DNA of 40,880 bases, taken from the NCBI GenBank assembly GCA_029246085.1, contig JAQWOB010000024.1, positions 1 to 40,880 on the forward strand, in the 5' to 3' direction. This stretch comes from Gammaproteobacteria bacterium. GTDB taxonomy: Bacteria > Pseudomonadota > Gammaproteobacteria > GCA-002705445 > GCA-002716945. A program made the translations under genes and the position numbers. The stretch's first letter is position 1; every line of letters begins with the position of its first letter. Below are positions 64-39,714 of this stretch, piece after piece. The notes under the pieces were generated by a model, which was not told the DNA's origin, did no database searches, and saw only the letters and a program-made list of their open reading frames with translations.

Positions 64-2553
<2,490 letters not shown>

Positions 2554-2557
2554 GGTT

Positions 2558-3064
2558 ATGGATTTTAAAAATATATTCATAGTTGGCTCAATGGGTTCTG
2601 GGAAAACTTCCATAGGAAAAATGCTGGCAAAAAATAACAATTTGTCTTTTCTTGATACCGATCATGAAATAATAAGAGATTGTGGATATAGTATTCCTGA
2701 TATTTTTAAAGAATTTGGCGAGGAACACTTTAGAGGCTTAGAGACTGAGCAGTTAAGAAAAATGAATTCCATAGAGAATCATGTTATTTCCACAGGTGGG
2801 GGAATAATATTAAGAGATGATAATAAAAAACTAATGAAAGATCTTGGTATTATAATTTTTTTAGATATTAATATTAATTCTCAAATAGATAGGGTTAAAA
2901 ATAGAAAAAATAGACCATTATTAAATAATAATAATTTAAAAGATAATTTATTATCTTTAAAAAAAACTAGGGATCCTATATATAAAAGTATTTCTAACTA
3001 TATAATAGATGTATCTGGAAAAGAAAGAGACCAAGTTATTAATGAAATACAAAAAATAATATGA
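2558..3064 (+). CDS. aroK: Shikimate kinase
   Basis: The enzyme phosphorylates shikimate at the 3-hydroxyl using ATP in the chorismate pathway. The Walker A loop GSMGSGKT is at 10-17. Asp33 and Asp35 in FLDTD fit the shikimate and Mg-binding acids. FGEEHFRGLE, STGGGIILRD and the lid arginine segment NRPLL follow in the usual order. At 168 aa the size is standard. An AAGG lies just before the ATG. The gene ends inside the aroB start (ATGA overlap of 4 bases), the classic aroK-aroB pair. Confidence 0.95.
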   Translation: MDFKNIFIVGSMGSGKTSIGKMLAKNNNLSFLDTDHEIIRDCGYSIPDIFKEFGEEHFRGLETEQLRKMNSIENHVISTGGGIILRDDNKKLMKDLGIIIFLDININSQIDRVKNRKNRPLLNNNNLKDNLLSLKKTRDPIYKSISNYIIDVSGKERDQVINEIQKII

Positions 3065-4137
3065 AAAAGATTTTATTTAAAATTGAAGGTAAAAACATAC
3101 CAATAATTATAGGTGATCGGATATGCAGTAAAGCTTCTATCTCAAAATATATTGATTACAAAGATGTTGTTATCATCACTAATACTAAAATAGCTAAACT
3201 TCATCTAAAAAATCTTGATAAATCTTTGAAAGGTTTTAATGTCAAAGCTCTTATCCTTCCTGATGGGGAAAAATATAAAAATATCTCTTCATTGAATAAA
3301 GTTCATGATTTTTTAATTAAAAATAAATTCAATAGAAACTTGACTATAATTGCTTTGGGTGGAGGAGTTATAGGTGACCTTGCAGGCTTTGCTTCAGATA
3401 CTTTCCTTAGAGGAGTAAACTTAATTCATATACCCACAACATTATTAGCTCAAGTAGATTCTTCTATTGGTGGAAAGACAGGAGTAAACCATAAATATGG
3501 TAAAAATTTAATAGGTAGTTTTAAGCACCCCGTGGCAATCTTTATTGATACAAGCTATTTAAAAACACTACCGCAAAAAGAATATATCTCCGGATTATCT
3601 GAGGTTGTTAAATATGGAGCAATTGGAAATAAAGTATTTTTAACATGGTTAAATAAAAATTCTAAATTAATTTTAGCAAGAGATTCTGATAGCATAATTA
3701 AACTAATTATAAATTCAGTTAAAGCAAAAATTTCTGTTGTTCAAAAAGATGAAAAAGAGTCAAATATAAGAGCTCATCTTAATTTTGGACATACTCTAGG
3801 GCATGCTATAGAGTCATCACTAAAGTACAAAGGTATCAGCCATGGAGAGGCAGTAAGCATAGGAATGCTATTTGCTTCAGCAATATCTGTAGAAAAAAGT
3901 GATTTAAAAATTGATGAATTTAACCTTATAGAAAACACATTGGCTAATTTCTCTTTACCAGTAAGAATACCTCCTTCTATTACATGCGCTAAAATTTTAC
4001 AAAATATGATATATGATAAAAAAAATAAGCAGGGCAAAATAAATTTTGTCCTACTTACGTCGATTGGTTCATGCGGCCTGAATGACCATATTAGTGATAG
4101 GTATATATTAGGATTGCTTAAAACTTTTCAATCATAA
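3061..4137 (+). CDS. aroB: 3-dehydroquinate synthase
   Basis: The enzyme converts DAHP to 3-dehydroquinate using NAD and a divalent metal, the second step of the shikimate pathway. The protein has LPDGEKYKN near 67, the NAD loop GGGVIGDLAG at 100-109, and the substrate-binding stretch HIPTTLLAQVDSSIGGKTG at 123-141. The likely metal ligands are Glu181, His244 (NFGHTLGHAIE) and His261 (HGEAVS). Length is 358 aa, as expected. It overlaps aroK by 4 bases and is followed 32 bases later by gltB. Confidence 0.96.
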   Translation: MKKILFKIEGKNIPIIIGDRICSKASISKYIDYKDVVIITNTKIAKLHLKNLDKSLKGFNVKALILPDGEKYKNISSLNKVHDFLIKNKFNRNLTIIALGGGVIGDLAGFASDTFLRGVNLIHIPTTLLAQVDSSIGGKTGVNHKYGKNLIGSFKHPVAIFIDTSYLKTLPQKEYISGLSEVVKYGAIGNKVFLTWLNKNSKLILARDSDSIIKLIINSVKAKISVVQKDEKESNIRAHLNFGHTLGHAIESSLKYKGISHGEAVSIGMLFASAISVEKSDLKIDEFNLIENTLANFSLPVRIPPSITCAKILQNMIYDKKNKQGKINFVLLTSIGSCGLNDHISDRYILGLLKTFQS

Positions 4138-4169
4138 ATGCATAAATAATATGCTAGTATCTAACTGAT

Positions 4170-7100
4170 ATGAAAAATAAATTTACACATAGCCAGAATG
4201 GTCTTTATAACCCTTTATTCGAGAGGGATAATTGTGGTTTTGGCCTAATAACTCAAATGGATGATATTCCATCCCATTGGGTTATAGATACCAGCATAAA
4301 AGCTCTGCAGAGACTGACTCATAGAGGAGCAATTTCTGATGATGGCAAGACCAGTGATGGCTGCGGCTTATTAATAAAAAAACCTGATTCATTTTTTAGA
4401 TCTGCAGCTAATGATATGGGTATTGAGCTAGGTTTAAATTATGCATTTGGTCCAGTTTTTCTAGATAAAAGTAATCAAAAAAAATGCATGGAAACTCTCC
4501 ATTTCCAATTGAGAAAACTAGGTTTAAATGTTGAGGGCTGGAGAAATGTTCCTACTAATAAAGATGCATGCGGAAAGGATGCTTTATCGAGTCTACCAAT
4601 AATAAAACAGGTTATTGTTACAGCTCCAGATGAAATGCTAGAGTCTGAGTTTGAAAAAAAATTATATATTGCGAGAGTACAGGCAGAAAAAATTTTAGCT
4701 GATGATGATATTTTCTACATACCAAGTCTCTCTGCAAAAGTTATTTCGTATAAAGGATTGATAATCTCAAATTATATCAAAGATTTCTATCCTGATTTAA
4801 CTAATAAGAAAATGAAAACATCTTTATGTGTTTTCCATCAAAGATTCTCAACTAATACATTGCCTCAATGGAAGTTAGCTCAACCATTTAGATATCTTGC
4901 ACATAATGGAGAAATTAATACTATCCAGGGGAATAGAAACTGGTATCTAGCTAGGCGGACTAAACTTAGTATTGAATCTCTTCCAGAATTAAATAAGCTT
5001 CATCCTTTAATCTCTAGAACTGATTCTGATTCATACACTCTAGACAATATGCTTGAACTTTTATTGGCTGGTGATATGGGAATATTTAGAGCGATGAGAA
5101 CATTAATGCCTCCAGCATGGCAAAATAATAAAAATATCGATGAAAAATTAAAGGCATGTTATGAATATCATTCTATGCATATGGAGCCATGGGATGGTCC
5201 GGCAGGAATAGTTCTTACAGATGGAAGATATGCGGCATGTGCACTAGATAGAAACGGATTAAGACCTGCGAGATATGTCATAACCAAGGACCGTCATATA
5301 ACATTAGCTTCAGAAATTGGAGTTTATGATTATAATAGTGAAGATGTAGTAGAAAAAGGCAGACTGGCCCCAGGTGAGATGTTGGCTGTAGATACTGAAA
5401 AAGGTGAAATTTTATCAACAGACCAAATAGATCATATTCTAAAAGATAGACACCCTTACTTGTCATGGTTGAAGAAACACTCTACAAAAGTTCCAGATTA
5501 TGAAGCTAAGAAAGAAGAGTCACTAAATTTTACAGACAACGAATTACTCTTATTTAAAAAATCTTTTACTGTTTCTTTTGAGGAAGAAAAAGAAATAATA
5601 GCTCCTCTTGCGGAAATTGGGCAAGAAGCAACTGGCTCCATGGGTGACGATACTCCCATGCCAGTTCTATCAAAACATAATAGATCAATATATGATTATT
5701 TTAGACAACAGTTTGCTCAGGTAACAAACCCTCCTATAGACCCATTGAGAGAGGCTAGCGTTATGTCGCTAGAAGTATGTTTTGGAAAAGAGAGAAACTT
5801 ATTCGAAGAATCTGCCAAACATGCAGATCGATTAATCCTTGGTTCACCAGTGTTAGATAGACAAACATACTTGTCAATATTAGCTTCAAAACAAAAGAAA
5901 TATCCTCATGATATTATTGATTTAAATTATGATGCATCACTAGATTTAGAAGAAGCTATTAATACAATATGTGACCGTGCAACCAGAAGTGTTAAAAAAG
6001 GTAATATAACAATAGTATTATCTGATAAAAAAATAAGTAAACATCAATTGATTATTCCAGCTCCCATGGCTGTAGGAGCGGTTCACCATAAGCTAATAGA
6101 TGCAGGATTAAGGTGTGATACAAATTTAATTATTGAAACCGGTTCTGCTAGAAATCCACATCACTATGCCGTGCTATTAGGGTATGGGGCTACAGCTATC
6201 TATCCATATTTAGCATATGAAATATTGAATGAGATGGTTGGTAAAAATAAAATTTCTGTAAAAAAATATGGTGAGTCTGTAGGTAATTATATAAAAGGGA
6301 TAAATAAAGGTATATTAAAAATAATGTCAAAAATGGGGATATCATGTGTCTCCAGTTACAGAGGTGCCCAGTTATTTGAGATCGTAGGTTTACATGAAAA
6401 AATAGTTGACCTATGTTTTAAAGATACCATTAGTCGTATATCTGGTTCAGATTTTTTAGATATACAAAAAGATTTAGAAGAAAACAGAGTTACTGCATGG
6501 GATGTATCTAAAGAAATAAAAACAGGTGGCCTTTTAAAATATGTTCATAATGAAGAACATCATGATTATAATCCAGATATTGTTAAATCTTTGCAGGAAT
6601 GCGTAAGCACTGGATATTACGAAGACTATAGAAAATATGCTGATCTTGTTAATGGAAGAAATCCAAGTTTTATGAGAGATTTATTATCTTTAAAATCAAC
6701 CTCAAAGAAAATTTCTATAACAAAAGTTGAGTCAATTAAAAAAATATTTCATAGATTTGATACAGCGGGAATGTCCTTAGGAGCCTTGTCACCGGAAGCA
6801 CATGAAGCTCTAGCAATTGCAATGAATACTTTAGGTGGACGCTCTAATTCAGGGGAAGGTGGAGAAGATAAAAAGAGGTTTAACACTAGTAAAAATTCTA
6901 AGATAAAACAAGTAGCTTCAGGAAGATTTGGTGTTACACCTCATTACCTTGTGAATGCAGAAGTAATTCAAATCAAAATTGCGCAAGGCGCAAAACCAGG
7001 AGAAGGAGGTCAGCTCCCAGGAGATAAAGTGAATGAGATGATTGCGGAGCTCAGATTTTCAGTACCCGGTGTAACTTTAATCTCACCTCCTCCACATCAT

Positions 7101-35970: not shown

Positions 35971-37671
35971 TTGAATATAGAAATAAAAAACATTATTGAA
36001 GCCTACTTGTTAGAAGCTACTTTTGATGAAGGTATAAACCCTATAGAAATATCAAAAGAAGGTTTTATTGAAGTTCAAAAAACGACTAATGAACTACATG
36101 GAGATTACTACTCAAATATTGCTATGAAATTAAGCAAGGTCTTGAAAAAGAATCCTATGGATATTGGGGAACATATAAAGAAGGATCTCACAGGAAAAAA
36201 ATATCCACAAATAAAAAAAATTGAAATTAAAAAGCCAGGGTTTATAAATTTTTTTATTGAGGACTCAAAAAGAGCATCTATAGTTACAGATATAATTCAA
36301 AGCAAGGATATTTTTAAAAAATTTAAAACTAAAACAAAAAAAAATATACATATAGAATTTGTATCTGCAAATCCAACAGGTCCTTTACATGTAGGTCATG
36401 GCAGAGGACTAATTTTTGGAAAAACCTTATCTAATATTTTACGAATTCAGGGTCATGATGTATTTACAGAATACTATGTAAACAATATAGGTAAGCAAAT
36501 AGATATACTATCGATAAGTGTAATATTGAGTATAGTTGGTCTAAAAAAACCGTTTGATGATGTAGATATTTATAAAGGTAAATATATTTCAATAGTGGCT
36601 GATAAATTAAAATCTCAGTATAGAGACTCACTATTAGTATGTAAAAGTTCTTTATCTAGTAACAATACCTATGAGTCATTTTTGAATATACTTAGAAAAG
36701 ATTTTAAGTCTTATCTGATATTTCGTGACTCAGTTATTGATATTATTATTAATAACTATATCAAAAAAGATCTTGATGATTTAAATGTAGAATTCTCTAA
36801 TTGGTTTCATGAGAGTGAGTTAATAAAAGATGACTTTGTTTATCAAATACTGGAAAACATAAAATCCAAAGACTTGTCTTATGTAAAGGATGGGGCCGTG
36901 TGGTTTAAATCCACTAAATACGGAGATGATAAAGACAGAGTTCTTGTAAGAGCTAATGGAGCCTTAACATATTTTGCTACTGATATAGCATACCATTCTC
37001 TTAAACTAGATAAATATGATTACATAATTAATATATGGGGCTCGGATCATCATGGGTATGTTTCAAGATTAACTAATGCATTAAAAGGTATTGGTTATGA
37101 TACAAATAAAATATCTATTCATTTAATACAATTTGCAAATTTATATAGAGATGGTCAAAAAATGTCCATGTCTACTAGGTCTGGTGAATTTATTACGCTG
37201 AAATCATTAGTTGATGAGATAGGATCAGATGCAATTAACTTTTTTTATATTAATAAAAAAATTGAACAACATTTAGATTTTGATATTAATACAGCATTAT
37301 CTAAAGACAAAGATAATCCTGTTTATTACATTCAATATGCTCATGCTAGAATAGAAAAAATAATCTCAAAAGTAAATTTAAAGGATCTAAATTTTGATGA
37401 TACGAAGTTAATAGACCCCAAGGAACAAGACTTATTAAGATTATTAAACAACTATGAAGAAACTTTTAGTGTAGCAATGAATACTCTTCAGCCTCAAATG
37501 ATTACTAATTATTTATACAAACTATCTCAAAGTTTTCATAGCTATTATGCAAATATAAAAATTATAGATGATGAAATTAACCATAGTAGAGTATCGCTAG
37601 TAATTGCTATACAGAAAGTTTTAAAAAATGGTTTAAATTTATTTGATATAAATGCTCCTGAGGACATGTAA
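35971..37671 (+). CDS. argS: Arginyl-tRNA synthetase
   Basis: ArgS attaches arginine to its tRNA. The class I HIGH motif is LHVGHGRG near 139-146, preceded by EFVSANPTGP, which is typical of ArgS. The region equivalent to KMSKS is KMSMSTRSGEF near 397. The anticodon-binding domain with YYIQYAHARIEKI is at the C-terminus. Length is 566 aa. The start is a TTG with AGGA five bases upstream; the first conserved residues follow closely and no ATG is in frame near by. It shares one base with the next gene. Confidence 0.94.
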   Translation: MNIEIKNIIEAYLLEATFDEGINPIEISKEGFIEVQKTTNELHGDYYSNIAMKLSKVLKKNPMDIGEHIKKDLTGKKYPQIKKIEIKKPGFINFFIEDSKRASIVTDIIQSKDIFKKFKTKTKKNIHIEFVSANPTGPLHVGHGRGLIFGKTLSNILRIQGHDVFTEYYVNNIGKQIDILSISVILSIVGLKKPFDDVDIYKGKYISIVADKLKSQYRDSLLVCKSSLSSNNTYESFLNILRKDFKSYLIFRDSVIDIIINNYIKKDLDDLNVEFSNWFHESELIKDDFVYQILENIKSKDLSYVKDGAVWFKSTKYGDDKDRVLVRANGALTYFATDIAYHSLKLDKYDYIINIWGSDHHGYVSRLTNALKGIGYDTNKISIHLIQFANLYRDGQKMSMSTRSGEFITLKSLVDEIGSDAINFFYINKKIEQHLDFDINTALSKDKDNPVYYIQYAHARIEKIISKVNLKDLNFDDTKLIDPKEQDLLRLLNNYEETFSVAMNTLQPQMITNYLYKLSQSFHSYYANIKIIDDEINHSRVSLVIAIQKVLKNGLNLFDINAPEDM

Positions 37672-38513
37672 TGAAGCAGAATAAAATAGCTATGATTTAT
37701 GATTTTGATGGAACACTTACTCCAAAAACTATGCAAGAATATACCCTGCTTCCAAAGCTAGGTTTAAATCCCAAGAGTTTTTGGGATTCTATTAATGAAG
37801 AATCAAAAAGAACTGGTGGCGAAACAATGATGGTTTTCATGAGACATTTGCTAGATCAAGCAAAAGAGAAAAACATAAAAATATCTAAAAATGAATTCTT
37901 TAAAATGGGCAAGGATATTAAATACTACCAAGGAGTAAGTGAATGGTTTGATAATATAAATAAATATGTAAAAAAATTATCTGGGAATGATATACAGATT
38001 TATCATTATATTATATCTGCTGGCCATATGGAGATACTAGATGGAGTCTCTATTAAAAAGTATATAAGAAAAATTTTTGCTTCAGAATATTTTTATAATA
38101 AGAATAAACATGCAGTCTTTCCAAAAATTGTTGTTACTGATACCACAAAAACTCAATACTTATTTAGAATCAATAAAGGCAAAGAAAAGTTATCTGAAAG
38201 TATCAATACTCATATGTCAGAAGATAAAAGGCCAATTCCATTTGATAATATGATTTATGTTGGAGATGGCTTAACTGATGTTCCAAGCATGGCTTTGATA
38301 AAAAAAGAAGGAGGTCATTCCATCGCTGTTTATCAGAAGAAATTGAAAGAGCAGGTAATTATATGCAAAGAACTTTCTCAAGCAAATAGAGTAGATTTTA
38401 TAGCAGAAGCAGACTATAGGAAAAATTCAAATTTATATAAGAAAACATGCTTATTGCTTAATTATGTTGTTGCTAAAATACAATATAATTTAGAACTAAA
38501 AAAATCAAAATAA
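37671..38513 (+). CDS. HAD superfamily hydrolase (phosphoserine-phosphatase-like)
   Basis: The 280-aa protein carries all HAD phosphatase motifs: DFDGTLT with nucleophile Asp11 and acid Asp13, YIISAGH as motif II, a lysine in INKGKEKL as motif III, and VGDGLTDVPSM as motif IV. The alpha-helical cap between motifs I and II is like that of the phosphoserine phosphatase group. The substrate cannot be named. It overlaps argS by one base (TAATG) and converges on speD with a 3-base gap. Confidence 0.82.
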   Translation: MKQNKIAMIYDFDGTLTPKTMQEYTLLPKLGLNPKSFWDSINEESKRTGGETMMVFMRHLLDQAKEKNIKISKNEFFKMGKDIKYYQGVSEWFDNINKYVKKLSGNDIQIYHYIISAGHMEILDGVSIKKYIRKIFASEYFYNKNKHAVFPKIVVTDTTKTQYLFRINKGKEKLSESINTHMSEDKRPIPFDNMIYVGDGLTDVPSMALIKKEGGHSIAVYQKKLKEQVIICKELSQANRVDFIAEADYRKNSNLYKKTCLLLNYVVAKIQYNLELKKSK

Positions 38514-38516
38514 GGA

Positions 38517-38900
38517 TTAATTTTCCTCAATCGTAATAAGGTCAGTTTTTCTATCTAAAAATTTATACTGTAACTTAGTTACATCATAAGAATCTTTTAA
38601 ATGTTTAATGACAATATTAAGGTCAAAAGACTTGCAGCTATAGACGTCTAGTTGAAATAATCCTGGCTTTTGTTCATCCCAGATATGTAACACAATATGG
38701 CTAGTTTCAATTAAAGCCATACATGTAATTCCCCTATTACCTTCTTGATCAACATAAGAAATATTAGGGCCCTGCATGAGTTTCATATCAATCTTAGTAA
38801 TGAGGGATTGCATCCAATCTAATACATATCCAAGGTTATCTCGCATTGGACAATTATCTACCTCAGCCCTAATTAAAAGATGTTTATGATCTACGGCCAT
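38517..38900 (-). CDS. speD: S-adenosylmethionine decarboxylase proenzyme (SpeD/SpeH type)
   Basis: The 127-aa protein resembles the small bacterial pyruvoyl-dependent AdoMet decarboxylases, which cleave themselves to form the pyruvoyl group and supply the aminopropyl donor for spermidine. Ser67 in IETSHIVLHIWDE is the likely cleavage serine, His72 and Cys89 (VYSCKSF) the processing and catalytic residues. The usual ESH-HTWPE pattern is altered: a threonine precedes the serine and the proline is an aspartate. It is divergent from speE, with 91 bases between the starts. A strong ribosome site precedes it. Some SpeD homologues have become ornithine or arginine decarboxylases, so the substrate is not proven. 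Confidence 0.85.
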   Translation of the reverse strand: MAVDHKHLLIRAEVDNCPMRDNLGYVLDWMQSLITKIDMKLMQGPNISYVDQEGNRGITCMALIETSHIVLHIWDEQKPGLFQLDVYSCKSFDLNIVIKHLKDSYDVTKLQYKFLDRKTDLITIEEN

Positions 38901-38991: not shown

Positions 38992-39714
38992 ATGTTAGTA
39001 AAAGAATATAATAAAGAATCAGGAACACAATTTGGCATAGAATGCGAAAAACTGCTATATAAAGCTAAATCAAAGTTTCAAAACATAAAAGTATATAAAT
39101 CTAAAAAATATGGAAATATTTTAATGCTAGATGATTGTTTCATGTTAACAGAAAAAGGCAATGATCAATATCATAATAAATGTATCTCTTTGATTGGCAA
39201 AAAATCAAGGAGCCTTGATGTTTTAATTATAGGTGGTGGAGACTTTGGTTTAATCAAGGGATTGTTTGAAAAGCTTAATGTAAATAGTATAAATTTAGTA
39301 GAAATTGACAATCAAGTTATTAATATATCTCGAGAATTTTTTCCATCATTTTTTAAATTAAGTAAAAAATCTAAAAATAAAGTTAGTATCCTAATAGAAG
39401 ATGGATATGAGTGGATTAAAAATAATAATACCCTAAAATTTGATGTAATTATCATTGATTGCACAGATCCAAATTTAATAGCAAAAAAACTATACTCTGA
39501 AAAATTTTACAAAAATATTTTTAATAACCTAAAGAATAATGGTCAATTAATTCAGCAAAGTGGATCACCATATCTTGATGAGAAAAAAATAATAATACCC
39601 ACAAAAAAGAAATTAGGTAAAATTGGTTTTAAAGACATATCACTTCATGAGTTTAGTATGCCTATTTATCCATTAGGATTATGGTCATTTATACAATGTA
39701 AAAAGGCGCTATAA
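38992..39714 (+). CDS. speE: Spermidine synthase-like aminopropyltransferase
   Basis: The enzyme class transfers the aminopropyl group of decarboxylated SAM to putrescine. The 240-aa protein has GNILMLDDCFMLTE near 41-54, Tyr60-His61, the decarboxylated-SAM site IIGGGDFG with Asp84, VEID at 103-106, and the catalytic DCTDP with Asp156 and Asp159. It is shorter than the typical 280 aa, and the segment normally ERDE-x-x-YHE reads EKGNDQYHN. speD next door supports a polyamine role. Whether the product is spermidine or another polyamine is open. The stop codon lies inside a strong hairpin. Confidence 0.85.
   Translation: MLVKEYNKESGTQFGIECEKLLYKAKSKFQNIKVYKSKKYGNILMLDDCFMLTEKGNDQYHNKCISLIGKKSRSLDVLIIGGGDFGLIKGLFEKLNVNSINLVEIDNQVINISREFFPSFFKLSKKSKNKVSILIEDGYEWIKNNNTLKFDVIIIDCTDPNLIAKKLYSEKFYKNIFNNLKNNGQLIQQSGSPYLDEKKIIIPTKKKLGKIGFKDISLHEFSMPIYPLGLWSFIQCKKAL

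What the first reader, a model, noticed from the sequence alone, without database searches (positions are those of the whole stretch)
38517..38900. SpeD with a Thr-Ser cleavage site and altered substrate loop
The autocleavage site, normally Glu-Ser-His, is Thr-Ser-His within IETSH, and HTWPE is HIWDE. This may mark a marine or phage-like subgroup of AdoMet decarboxylases, or a homologue with a changed substrate such as ornithine or arginine, as known for some SpeD proteins. Adjacency to speE argues for a polyamine role either way.
Basis: partly seen in the sequence, partly recalled or inferred. Interest (0 to 1): 0.5.

Follow-up and report, generated by a model that had tools for sequence, protein, structure and literature searches.

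The report
Phage-like SpeD, probably an arginine decarboxylase
A small marine bacterium carries, beside its spermidine-synthase gene, an enzyme gene of a type otherwise seen mostly in viruses; it has probably switched from S-adenosylmethionine to arginine and so makes the first building block of the cell's polyamines.

Summary
In detail: window 38517-38900(-) encodes a 127-aa class-1b SpeD with IETSH at the pyruvoyl serine and HIWDE in place of HTWPE. It is a lineage trait: 23 of 23 homologues from its own family of ~1-Mb Gammaproteobacteria and 80 of 80 viral loci examined (64 distinct sequences) carry IETSH. The nearest biochemically characterised relative found is pelagiphage HTVC201P SpeD (41% identity, same motifs), published as an L-arginine decarboxylase without AdoMetDC activity. 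The host genome also encodes a second, class-1a-like SpeD that could supply AdoMetDC activity, one SpeE, an aguA-aguB pair (agmatine to putrescine), and none of the other arginine/ornithine decarboxylase families searched. Five viral contigs hold SpeY-agmatinase-SpeD gene runs. The gap in the pathway is arginine to agmatine, so the finding is most probably a SpeDA-type arginine decarboxylase. Against this: no assay; one relative rated complete lacks aguAB; phage homologues described as similar to HTVC201P decarboxylate ornithine; and the tree only marginally disfavours grouping with AdoMetDCs (AU p 0.055). SpeD-derived arginine decarboxylases are known; this would be a new chromosomal, gammaproteobacterial member related to the phage enzymes.

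The parts
38517..38900 (-). speD-like gene (class 1b size, 127 aa), proposed pyruvoyl arginine decarboxylase (SpeDA type)
   Evidence: ORF; Pfam AdoMet_dc E 2.7e-12; AF2 model mean pLDDT 93.5, best solved match T. maritima AdoMetDC 1tlu Z 14.3, rmsd 2.2, 111 aligned
38697..38711 (-). IETSH: predicted autocleavage/pyruvoyl site; Ser67 = T. maritima Ser63, Thr66 in place of Glu62
   Evidence: Thr at this place in 113 of 113 group rows (near-copies not removed) and in 0 of 5 proven AdoMetDCs
38673..38687 (-). HIWDE (canonical HTWPE): His72 = catalytic His68; Asp75 in place of Pro71; Glu76 = Glu72
38634..38636 (-). Cys89 codon = T. maritima Cys83 (processing/decarboxylation)
   Evidence: roles of Ser63, His68, Cys83 as stated in PMC10407285
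38901..38991 (.). 91-bp intergenic region between the divergently transcribed speD-like gene and speE
   Evidence: promoter-like matches in the surrounding 601 bases not above shuffles (3 found, mean 4.4)
38992..39714 (+). speE-like aminopropyltransferase (240 aa), presumed spermidine synthase
   Evidence: PF01564 E 5.1e-38; PRK00811 210.4 bits, below its 260 cut-off; best PDB match a spermidine synthase, E 3.5e-36

Best explanation
The gene encodes a self-cleaving pyruvoyl enzyme with the AdoMetDC class-1b fold that most probably decarboxylates L-arginine to agmatine (SpeDA type). Inferred pathway: arginine -> agmatine (this protein) -> N-carbamoylputrescine (AguA) -> putrescine (AguB) -> spermidine (SpeE), with decarboxylated AdoMet supplied by the second, class-1a-like SpeD elsewhere in the genome. 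Shown here: predicted fold, intact Ser/His/Cys, motif shared with a published arginine decarboxylase, two SpeDs, one adjacent SpeE, an aguA-aguB-like pair, and no match to the other arginine or ornithine decarboxylase families searched. Inferred: self-cleavage, the activity, and the share of work between the two SpeDs.
For: (1) Nearest named phage records are pelagiphage SpeDs (40-46%). HTVC201P SpeD, 41% identical, is published as an L-arginine decarboxylase (kcat/Km 290 M-1 s-1), inactive on ornithine and lysine, and it did not restore spermidine to an E. coli speD mutant (PMC9992855, part 1 of section 6 read). (2) Thr before the pyruvoyl Ser in 113 of 113 group rows and 0 of 5 proven AdoMetDCs; the finding and HTVC201P also share H5, R11, E65 and Q83, none of them seen in those five, P2559S being gapped at the first two. 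(3) A second SpeD, related to class 1a, in 16 of 16 family genomes searched (TIGR03331 E 2.6e-10 but below its cut-off; Ser/His/Cys kept). (4) Adjacent aguA-aguB-like genes in the host genome; AguA family in 14 of 16, AguB in 19 of 22 family genomes. (5) No other source found: PF01276 and PF01862 in 0 of 24 genomes, 16 of them family; the only PF02784 match in G000 is LysA; PF00491 in 1 of 16 family genomes, not G000. (6) Viral relatives directly downstream of SpeY-like and agmatinase-like genes in 3 of 80 loci and 5 of 16 of a closer set that repeats those 3 contigs; no SpeE hit in any of these 96 stretches.
Against: No assay. G007 (completeness 100, contamination 5) keeps the gene but has no PF04371, AguB or PF00491 match, and aguAB is absent at the syntenic place. 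PMC9992855 says that phage homologues 'similar to' HTVC201P (LBP, UCP01-04) decarboxylate ornithine, UCP01 also arginine; their sequences were not obtained. The AU test does not strictly reject gamma rows held with six AdoMetDC rows, five of them proven (p 0.055), and allows all phage rows to be one clade without gamma (p 0.348), so the lineage could have branched before a substrate shift. The AguA- and AguB-like proteins score far below their curated cut-offs (67.9 vs 381.8 and 175.6 vs 410.25 bits). 77 of 80 and 11 of 16 viral loci show no agmatinase or SpeY neighbour. Thr before the serine also occurs in three more distant, untested rows (ITSH: L096, L097, L099). The gene stands beside speE, and the class-1a-like SpeD is itself very divergent (40.1 vs 255.8 bits).
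Confidence: 0.64

Rival explanations
1. It is a pyruvoyl ornithine decarboxylase (SpeDC type) or a dual ornithine/arginine enzyme that makes putrescine directly.
For: PMC9992855 reports that phage SpeDs similar to HTVC201P (LBP, UCP01-04) are ornithine decarboxylases and that UCP01 uses both substrates; PMC10407285 places HTVC201P inside the SpeDC clade. It would explain G007, which keeps the gene without aguAB or agmatinase matches.
Against: aguA-aguB, present in 14 of 16 and 19 of 22 family genomes, would then have no internal agmatine source that I could find; some viral relatives adjoin agmatinase-like genes. The four SpeDC diagnostic residues could not be checked, because the figure is not held.
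Confidence: 0.22
2. It is still an S-adenosylmethionine decarboxylase serving the adjacent SpeE, merely with divergent motifs; the class-1a-like SpeD does something else or is redundant.
For: speE lies beside it in 21 of 22 gamma loci of the named collection and 22 of 23 loci of the genome search, the exception in each case ending at a contig edge; Glu76 (= Glu72) kept; two proven phage AdoMetDCs, phiYS40 and phiN3, also lack the HTWPE proline; AU p 0.055; the class-1a-like SpeD is divergent and scores low.
Against: 18-26% identity to five proven AdoMetDCs against 39% to the published arginine decarboxylase over aligned columns; IETSH in none of the five; arginine to agmatine would be left without an enzyme while aguAB is present.
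Confidence: 0.12
3. Phage gene remnant or binning artefact without a function in the cell.
For: The relatives found are mostly viral, and two relatives filed under archaeal and Neomarinimicrobiota genomes sit among phage-like genes.
Against: Found in 23 of 25 family genomes, with a HAD-like gene homologue in 23 of 23 and a SpeE homologue in 22 of 23 of these loci, on contigs up to 820 kb, with catalytic residues intact.
Confidence: 0.02

Closest known systems
Pelagiphage HTVC201P SpeD homologue (AXH71538), pyruvoyl L-arginine decarboxylase
   Same: 41% identity over nearly the whole length, same GN[RK]GxTC, IETSH, HxWDE, QLDxY[ST]C blocks; Thr before the pyruvoyl serine
   Different: Phage gene between an exonuclease and hypothetical gene and ribonucleotide reductase genes; the finding is chromosomal, divergent to speE, in a genome with its own aguAB-like pair and a second SpeD; activity of the finding untested
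Bacterial and archaeal SpeDA arginine decarboxylases (PMC10407285)
   Same: SpeD homologue in a genome with a second SpeD and without SpeA/SpeC but with an agmatine-to-putrescine route: signs that the paper itself used to pick candidates
   Different: Named SpeDA proteins (Marinimicrobia/Vampirovibrio, Gimesia/Solirubrobacter, Sulfolobus) could not be fetched or aligned here; Gammaproteobacteria are not among the groups named in the abstract
Class 1b AdoMetDC, e.g. Thermotoga maritima TM0655 (1TLU)
   Same: Fold (Z 14.3, rmsd 2.2 over 111 residues), Ser63/His68/Cys83
   Different: 21% identity; Glu62 to Thr, Pro71 to Asp, Glu11 to Arg, inserted residues around G54-N55 and P79; TIGR03330 35.5 bits against a cut-off of 75.65
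Class 1a AdoMetDC (E. coli type), for the second SpeD of the genome
   Same: ESH...H[TS]Y...C...D[YF]..RG kept when aligned with a canonical-looking class 1a SpeD of a relative; TIGR03331 best family
   Different: Far below the curated cut-off (40.1 vs 255.8 bits); open frames of 216-270 aa, diverged C-terminal part

Membership tests
SpeD-derived arginine decarboxylase (SpeDA) | SpeD fold with pyruvoyl Ser, His and Cys of self-processing retained | tested here: met
   Predicted model and alignment; cleavage itself not tested
SpeD-derived arginine decarboxylase (SpeDA) | Decarboxylates L-arginine and lacks AdoMetDC activity | not testable with these tools
   Needs an assay; nearest published relative HTVC201P at 41% identity (PMC9992855)
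SpeD-derived arginine decarboxylase (SpeDA) | Anomalous SpeD: two SpeDs with one SpeE, no SpeA/SpeC, and an agmatine-to-putrescine route | tested here: met
   For G000, a draft of completeness 90.92. Relative G007 lacks the agmatine route
SpeD-derived arginine decarboxylase (SpeDA) | Lack of the proline (gamma) that PMC10407285 calls fully conserved in AdoMetDCs | tested here: inconclusive
   The figure marking it is not held; the finding has no Pro at residues 46-78, but two proven phage AdoMetDCs also lack the HTWPE Pro
SpeD-derived ornithine decarboxylase (SpeDC) | Four diagnostic residues Gln, Thr, Phe, Tyr | not testable with these tools
   Positions are shown only in a figure that is not held; no proven SpeDC sequence was obtained
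Class 1b AdoMetDC (TIGR03330) | Score over the curated equivalog cut-off | tested here: not met
   35.5 vs 75.65 bits. Not diagnostic: 3 of 5 proven AdoMetDCs (phiYS40 70.3, P2559S 63.3, phiN3 28.9) also fail; T. maritima 155.4 and S-PM2 133.1 pass
Class 1b AdoMetDC (TIGR03330) | Acidic residue (Glu/Asp) before the pyruvoyl serine | tested here: not met
   Thr66; Glu or Asp in 5 of 5 proven AdoMetDCs compared. That this defines the family is my reading, not a curated rule
Class 1b AdoMetDC (TIGR03330) | AdoMet decarboxylase activity | not testable with these tools

The most novel reading that the evidence does not exclude
A lineage of small-genome marine Gammaproteobacteria has replaced PLP-dependent arginine decarboxylase with a pyruvoyl SpeD of the type otherwise carried mainly by viruses, while a class-1a-like SpeD keeps the AdoMetDC role. 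This bacterial gene would be a chromosomal counterpart, possibly donor or recipient, of the viral arginine decarboxylases whose cellular origin is open. In G007, which lacks aguAB, the same enzyme would have to serve a further end (dual ornithine use, or agmatine itself as product or SpeE substrate).
Probability: 0.3. Interest if true: 0.6.

Novelty: new member of a known kind. Interest (0 to 1): 0.46.

Why it matters
PMC10407285 lists the HTVC201P type as a potential fourth origin of arginine decarboxylase from SpeD and thinks it more likely that phages took such genes from bacterial hosts; in the parts I read it names no cellular member of that type. A chromosomal gene of the same motif group, in a genome where the reaction otherwise seems to be missing, makes both the activity and the question of transfer testable. 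It also warns that 'speD beside speE' should not be annotated as AdoMet decarboxylase by default, and that the many viral 'SpeD' genes of this motif may serve the arginine or ornithine step.

Tried and rejected
HTWPE proline loss as a mark of changed substrate: rejected as a lone criterion, since proven AdoMetDCs phiYS40 and phiN3 lack it too. The TIGR03330 cut-off as a discriminator: rejected, since 3 of 5 proven AdoMetDCs fail it. A single-SpeD genome (first impression): wrong; the class-1a-like SpeD appeared as weak PF02675 matches in relatives and was found in G000 by protein search. Direction of exchange with phages: not resolved (open forks). Proven SpeDC and bacterial SpeDA sequences: not obtained; a phage search with L096 listed 20 of 66 records, none of them the proven ornithine phages. 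Phycisphaerae (L091, L092) and Magnetococcales (L095) relatives had no hit to my AguA, AguB, SpeE, SpeY, agmatinase or PLP-decarboxylase queries in the fetched ~10 kb, so their context tells nothing. Literature searches: one search found the two key papers; SAR86 plus spermidine plus AdoMetDC gave 0 papers; SpeD/arginine decarboxylase/pelagiphage 44, 25 listed; two SpeD/agmatine deiminase 33, 15 listed; T. maritima substrate binding 222, 8 listed; SpeDA/SpeDC only PMC10407285; marine Gammaproteobacteria/agmatine/speE 120, 10 listed. In the listings I saw nothing on this lineage; I opened only PMC10407285 (abstract, all of Results, part 1 of 2 of the Discussion, passages) and PMC9992855 (passages and part 1 of 2 of section 6). 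The lineage's formal name was not established: record titles say Gammaproteobacteria, one 'Ectothiorhodospiraceae', one 'bacterium'. The viral fold search added no characterised relative.

Full report
OBSERVATION. The ORF at 38517-38900(-) is a 127-aa SpeD homologue. IETSH (38697-38711) holds the pyruvoyl serine; HIWDE (38673-38687) stands where AdoMetDCs such as that of T. maritima have HTWPE. Ser67, His72 and Cys89 correspond to T. maritima Ser63, His68 and Cys83. AlphaFold2 gives a confident model (mean pLDDT 93.5) whose best solved match is T. maritima AdoMetDC (1tlu, Z 14.3, rmsd 2.2, 111 residues). So the fold and self-processing residues are those of SpeD; residues around them differ.

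LINEAGE. The window belongs to a 0.96-Mb draft genome of completeness 90.92. 23 of 96 genomes searched, all from the own family (23 of 25 family genomes, 0 of 71 others), carry the gene; the two misses are genomes of completeness 75 and 68. Record titles of the same lineage in a named collection mostly say Gammaproteobacteria; 'marine' rests on isolate names and on the phage relatives, not on a field that I checked. The motif is invariant in all 23 copies. In these 23 loci a SpeE homologue is present in 22, the exception (L003) ending at its contig edge, and a homologue of the HAD-like gene in 23. The SpeD-like protein is more conserved than its SpeE neighbour in 21 of 21 comparisons with the window's copies (61-97% against 47-93%).

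RELATIVES. Among 50,697 phage records 24 match, the best being pelagiphages at 40-46% identity. In the viral collection at least 501 stretches encode relatives; of the best 80 (64 distinct sequences), 80 have IETSH and none has a proline in the HTWPE place. The search patterns used GN[RK]G and QLDxYxC, so those columns are conserved partly by selection; IETSH was not in the patterns. Other non-viral-looking relatives are few: two Phycisphaerae (48 and 50%), one Magnetococcales (41%), and distant archaeal or uncultured ones (29-35%). HTVC201P SpeD was shown by others to decarboxylate L-arginine, not ornithine or lysine, and not to replace AdoMetDC (PMC9992855). In a 54-row tree the gamma rows form one clade (99/96), with the two Phycisphaerae rows as sister (87/80), inside a 44-row group with the pelagiphages and other viral rows (94/80); four of the five proven AdoMetDCs lie across a 97/90 branch, with phiN3 on a long branch between. 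The program warned that several long branches, the AdoMetDCs among them, meet. The strict test is weaker: holding the gamma rows with six AdoMetDC rows (five proven and MaAM05_2) gives AU p 0.055, and holding all phage rows together without gamma gives p 0.348. So neither the direction of transfer nor an early branching of the gamma lineage is settled.

GENOME LOGIC. The same genomes hold a second SpeD, about 248 aa in G000, related to the class 1a type and near coq7-like and trpC-like genes (names from my reading of the sequences), in 16 of 16 family genomes searched. It keeps the pyruvoyl Ser, the His and the Cys, though its TIGR03331 score is low (40.1 bits against 255.8). Thus AdoMetDC activity can come from elsewhere. 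The host genome has an adjacent pair, G000:C25 31038-32063 and 32063-32905, whose best families are agmatine deiminase and N-carbamoylputrescine amidase, both far under their cut-offs. AguA-family matches occur in 14 of 16 family genomes, AguB in 19 of 22 (G007, G008 and G021 lack it). No OKR_DC_1 or PvlArgDC protein was found in 24 genomes; the one Orn_Arg_deC match of G000 is LysA, 470.6 bits over a cut-off of 297.9; arginase/agmatinase occurs in 1 of 16 family genomes, G008. Arginine to agmatine is therefore the reaction without an enzyme, and the finding an enzyme without a settled reaction. PMC10407285 used such signs (two SpeDs, or a SpeD without SpeE; no SpeA/SpeC; AguAB or SpeB present) to pick SpeDA candidates, which it then proved.

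VIRAL CONTEXT. In 3 of 80 viral loci, and in 5 of 16 of a closer set that repeats the same three contigs, the SpeD relative follows SpeY-like and agmatinase-like genes (the two agmatinases scanned reach TIGR01230 156.1 and 154.4 bits, under the 174.3 cut-off). The other 77 and 11 loci show neither gene; 13 of the 80 have under 2.5 kb upstream. None of the 96 stretches had a SpeE, AguA or AguB hit. The five-contig arrangement fits arginine -> agmatine -> putrescine -> homospermidine.

AGAINST. G007 is rated complete but has no aguA, aguB or agmatinase match; at the syntenic place the pair is missing. Its SpeD has the same motifs. An ornithine or dual enzyme would explain this, and PMC9992855 describes ornithine decarboxylases among phage SpeDs similar to HTVC201P. 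Their sequences were not obtained, nor could the residues that PMC10407285 calls diagnostic be placed, since figures are not held. G008 lacks aguAB too, but is 70% complete and has an agmatinase on contig C30, which may be foreign (35.5% G+C against 29-31% in two other stretches of G008).

VERDICT. Most likely a SpeDA-type arginine decarboxylase (0.64), then an ornithine or dual enzyme (0.22), then an ordinary AdoMetDC (0.12), with 0.02 for a remnant or artefact. A new chromosomal member of a known kind, of interest as a cellular relative of the pelagiphage type in a genome whose pathway asks for it.

Noticed in passing
L133 (Microcystis phage MaAM05, MW495066) 1971-4333: A phage gene run with two SpeDs (one passes the AdoMetDC cut-off at 143.9 bits, one at 65.3 does not), speE and speB as annotated: it looks like a route from arginine to spermidine in one phage.
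   Followed up: partly
L160, L177, L196, L218, L221 (viral contigs): Contiguous SpeY-like, agmatinase-like and SpeD-like genes, with no hit to my PLP-decarboxylase or SpeE queries in the fetched stretches.
   Followed up: partly
L090 and L094: SpeD relatives filed under a Pacearchaeota and a Neomarinimicrobiota genome sit among what read as phage genes (L094 before a ribonucleotide-reductase-like frame, as in pelagiphages); probably viral contigs in the bins (names from my reading).
   Followed up: partly
G008:C30 (L067): A PLP-decarboxylase-like, SpeY-like and agmatinase cluster on a contig with higher G+C than two other stretches of that genome; foreign contig or recent acquisition.
   Followed up: partly
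window 38992-39714: The SpeE has Met where the best PDB match has the Gln of 'IQLTEK', and in L009 and L011, both of genus g6, the His of the YH pair is Lys (which showed 11 of 23 loci). SpeE is less conserved than the SpeD-like protein in 21 of 21 loci compared.
   Followed up: partly
window 37671-38513: A HAD-like phosphatase gene lies tail to tail with the SpeD-like gene (3-bp gap) and a homologue follows in 23 of 23 family loci; its role is unknown.
   Followed up: partly
L098 and L100: SpeD relatives whose frames hold in-frame stops under table 11 (L098 is labelled Absconditabacterales); perhaps an altered genetic code.
   Followed up: no
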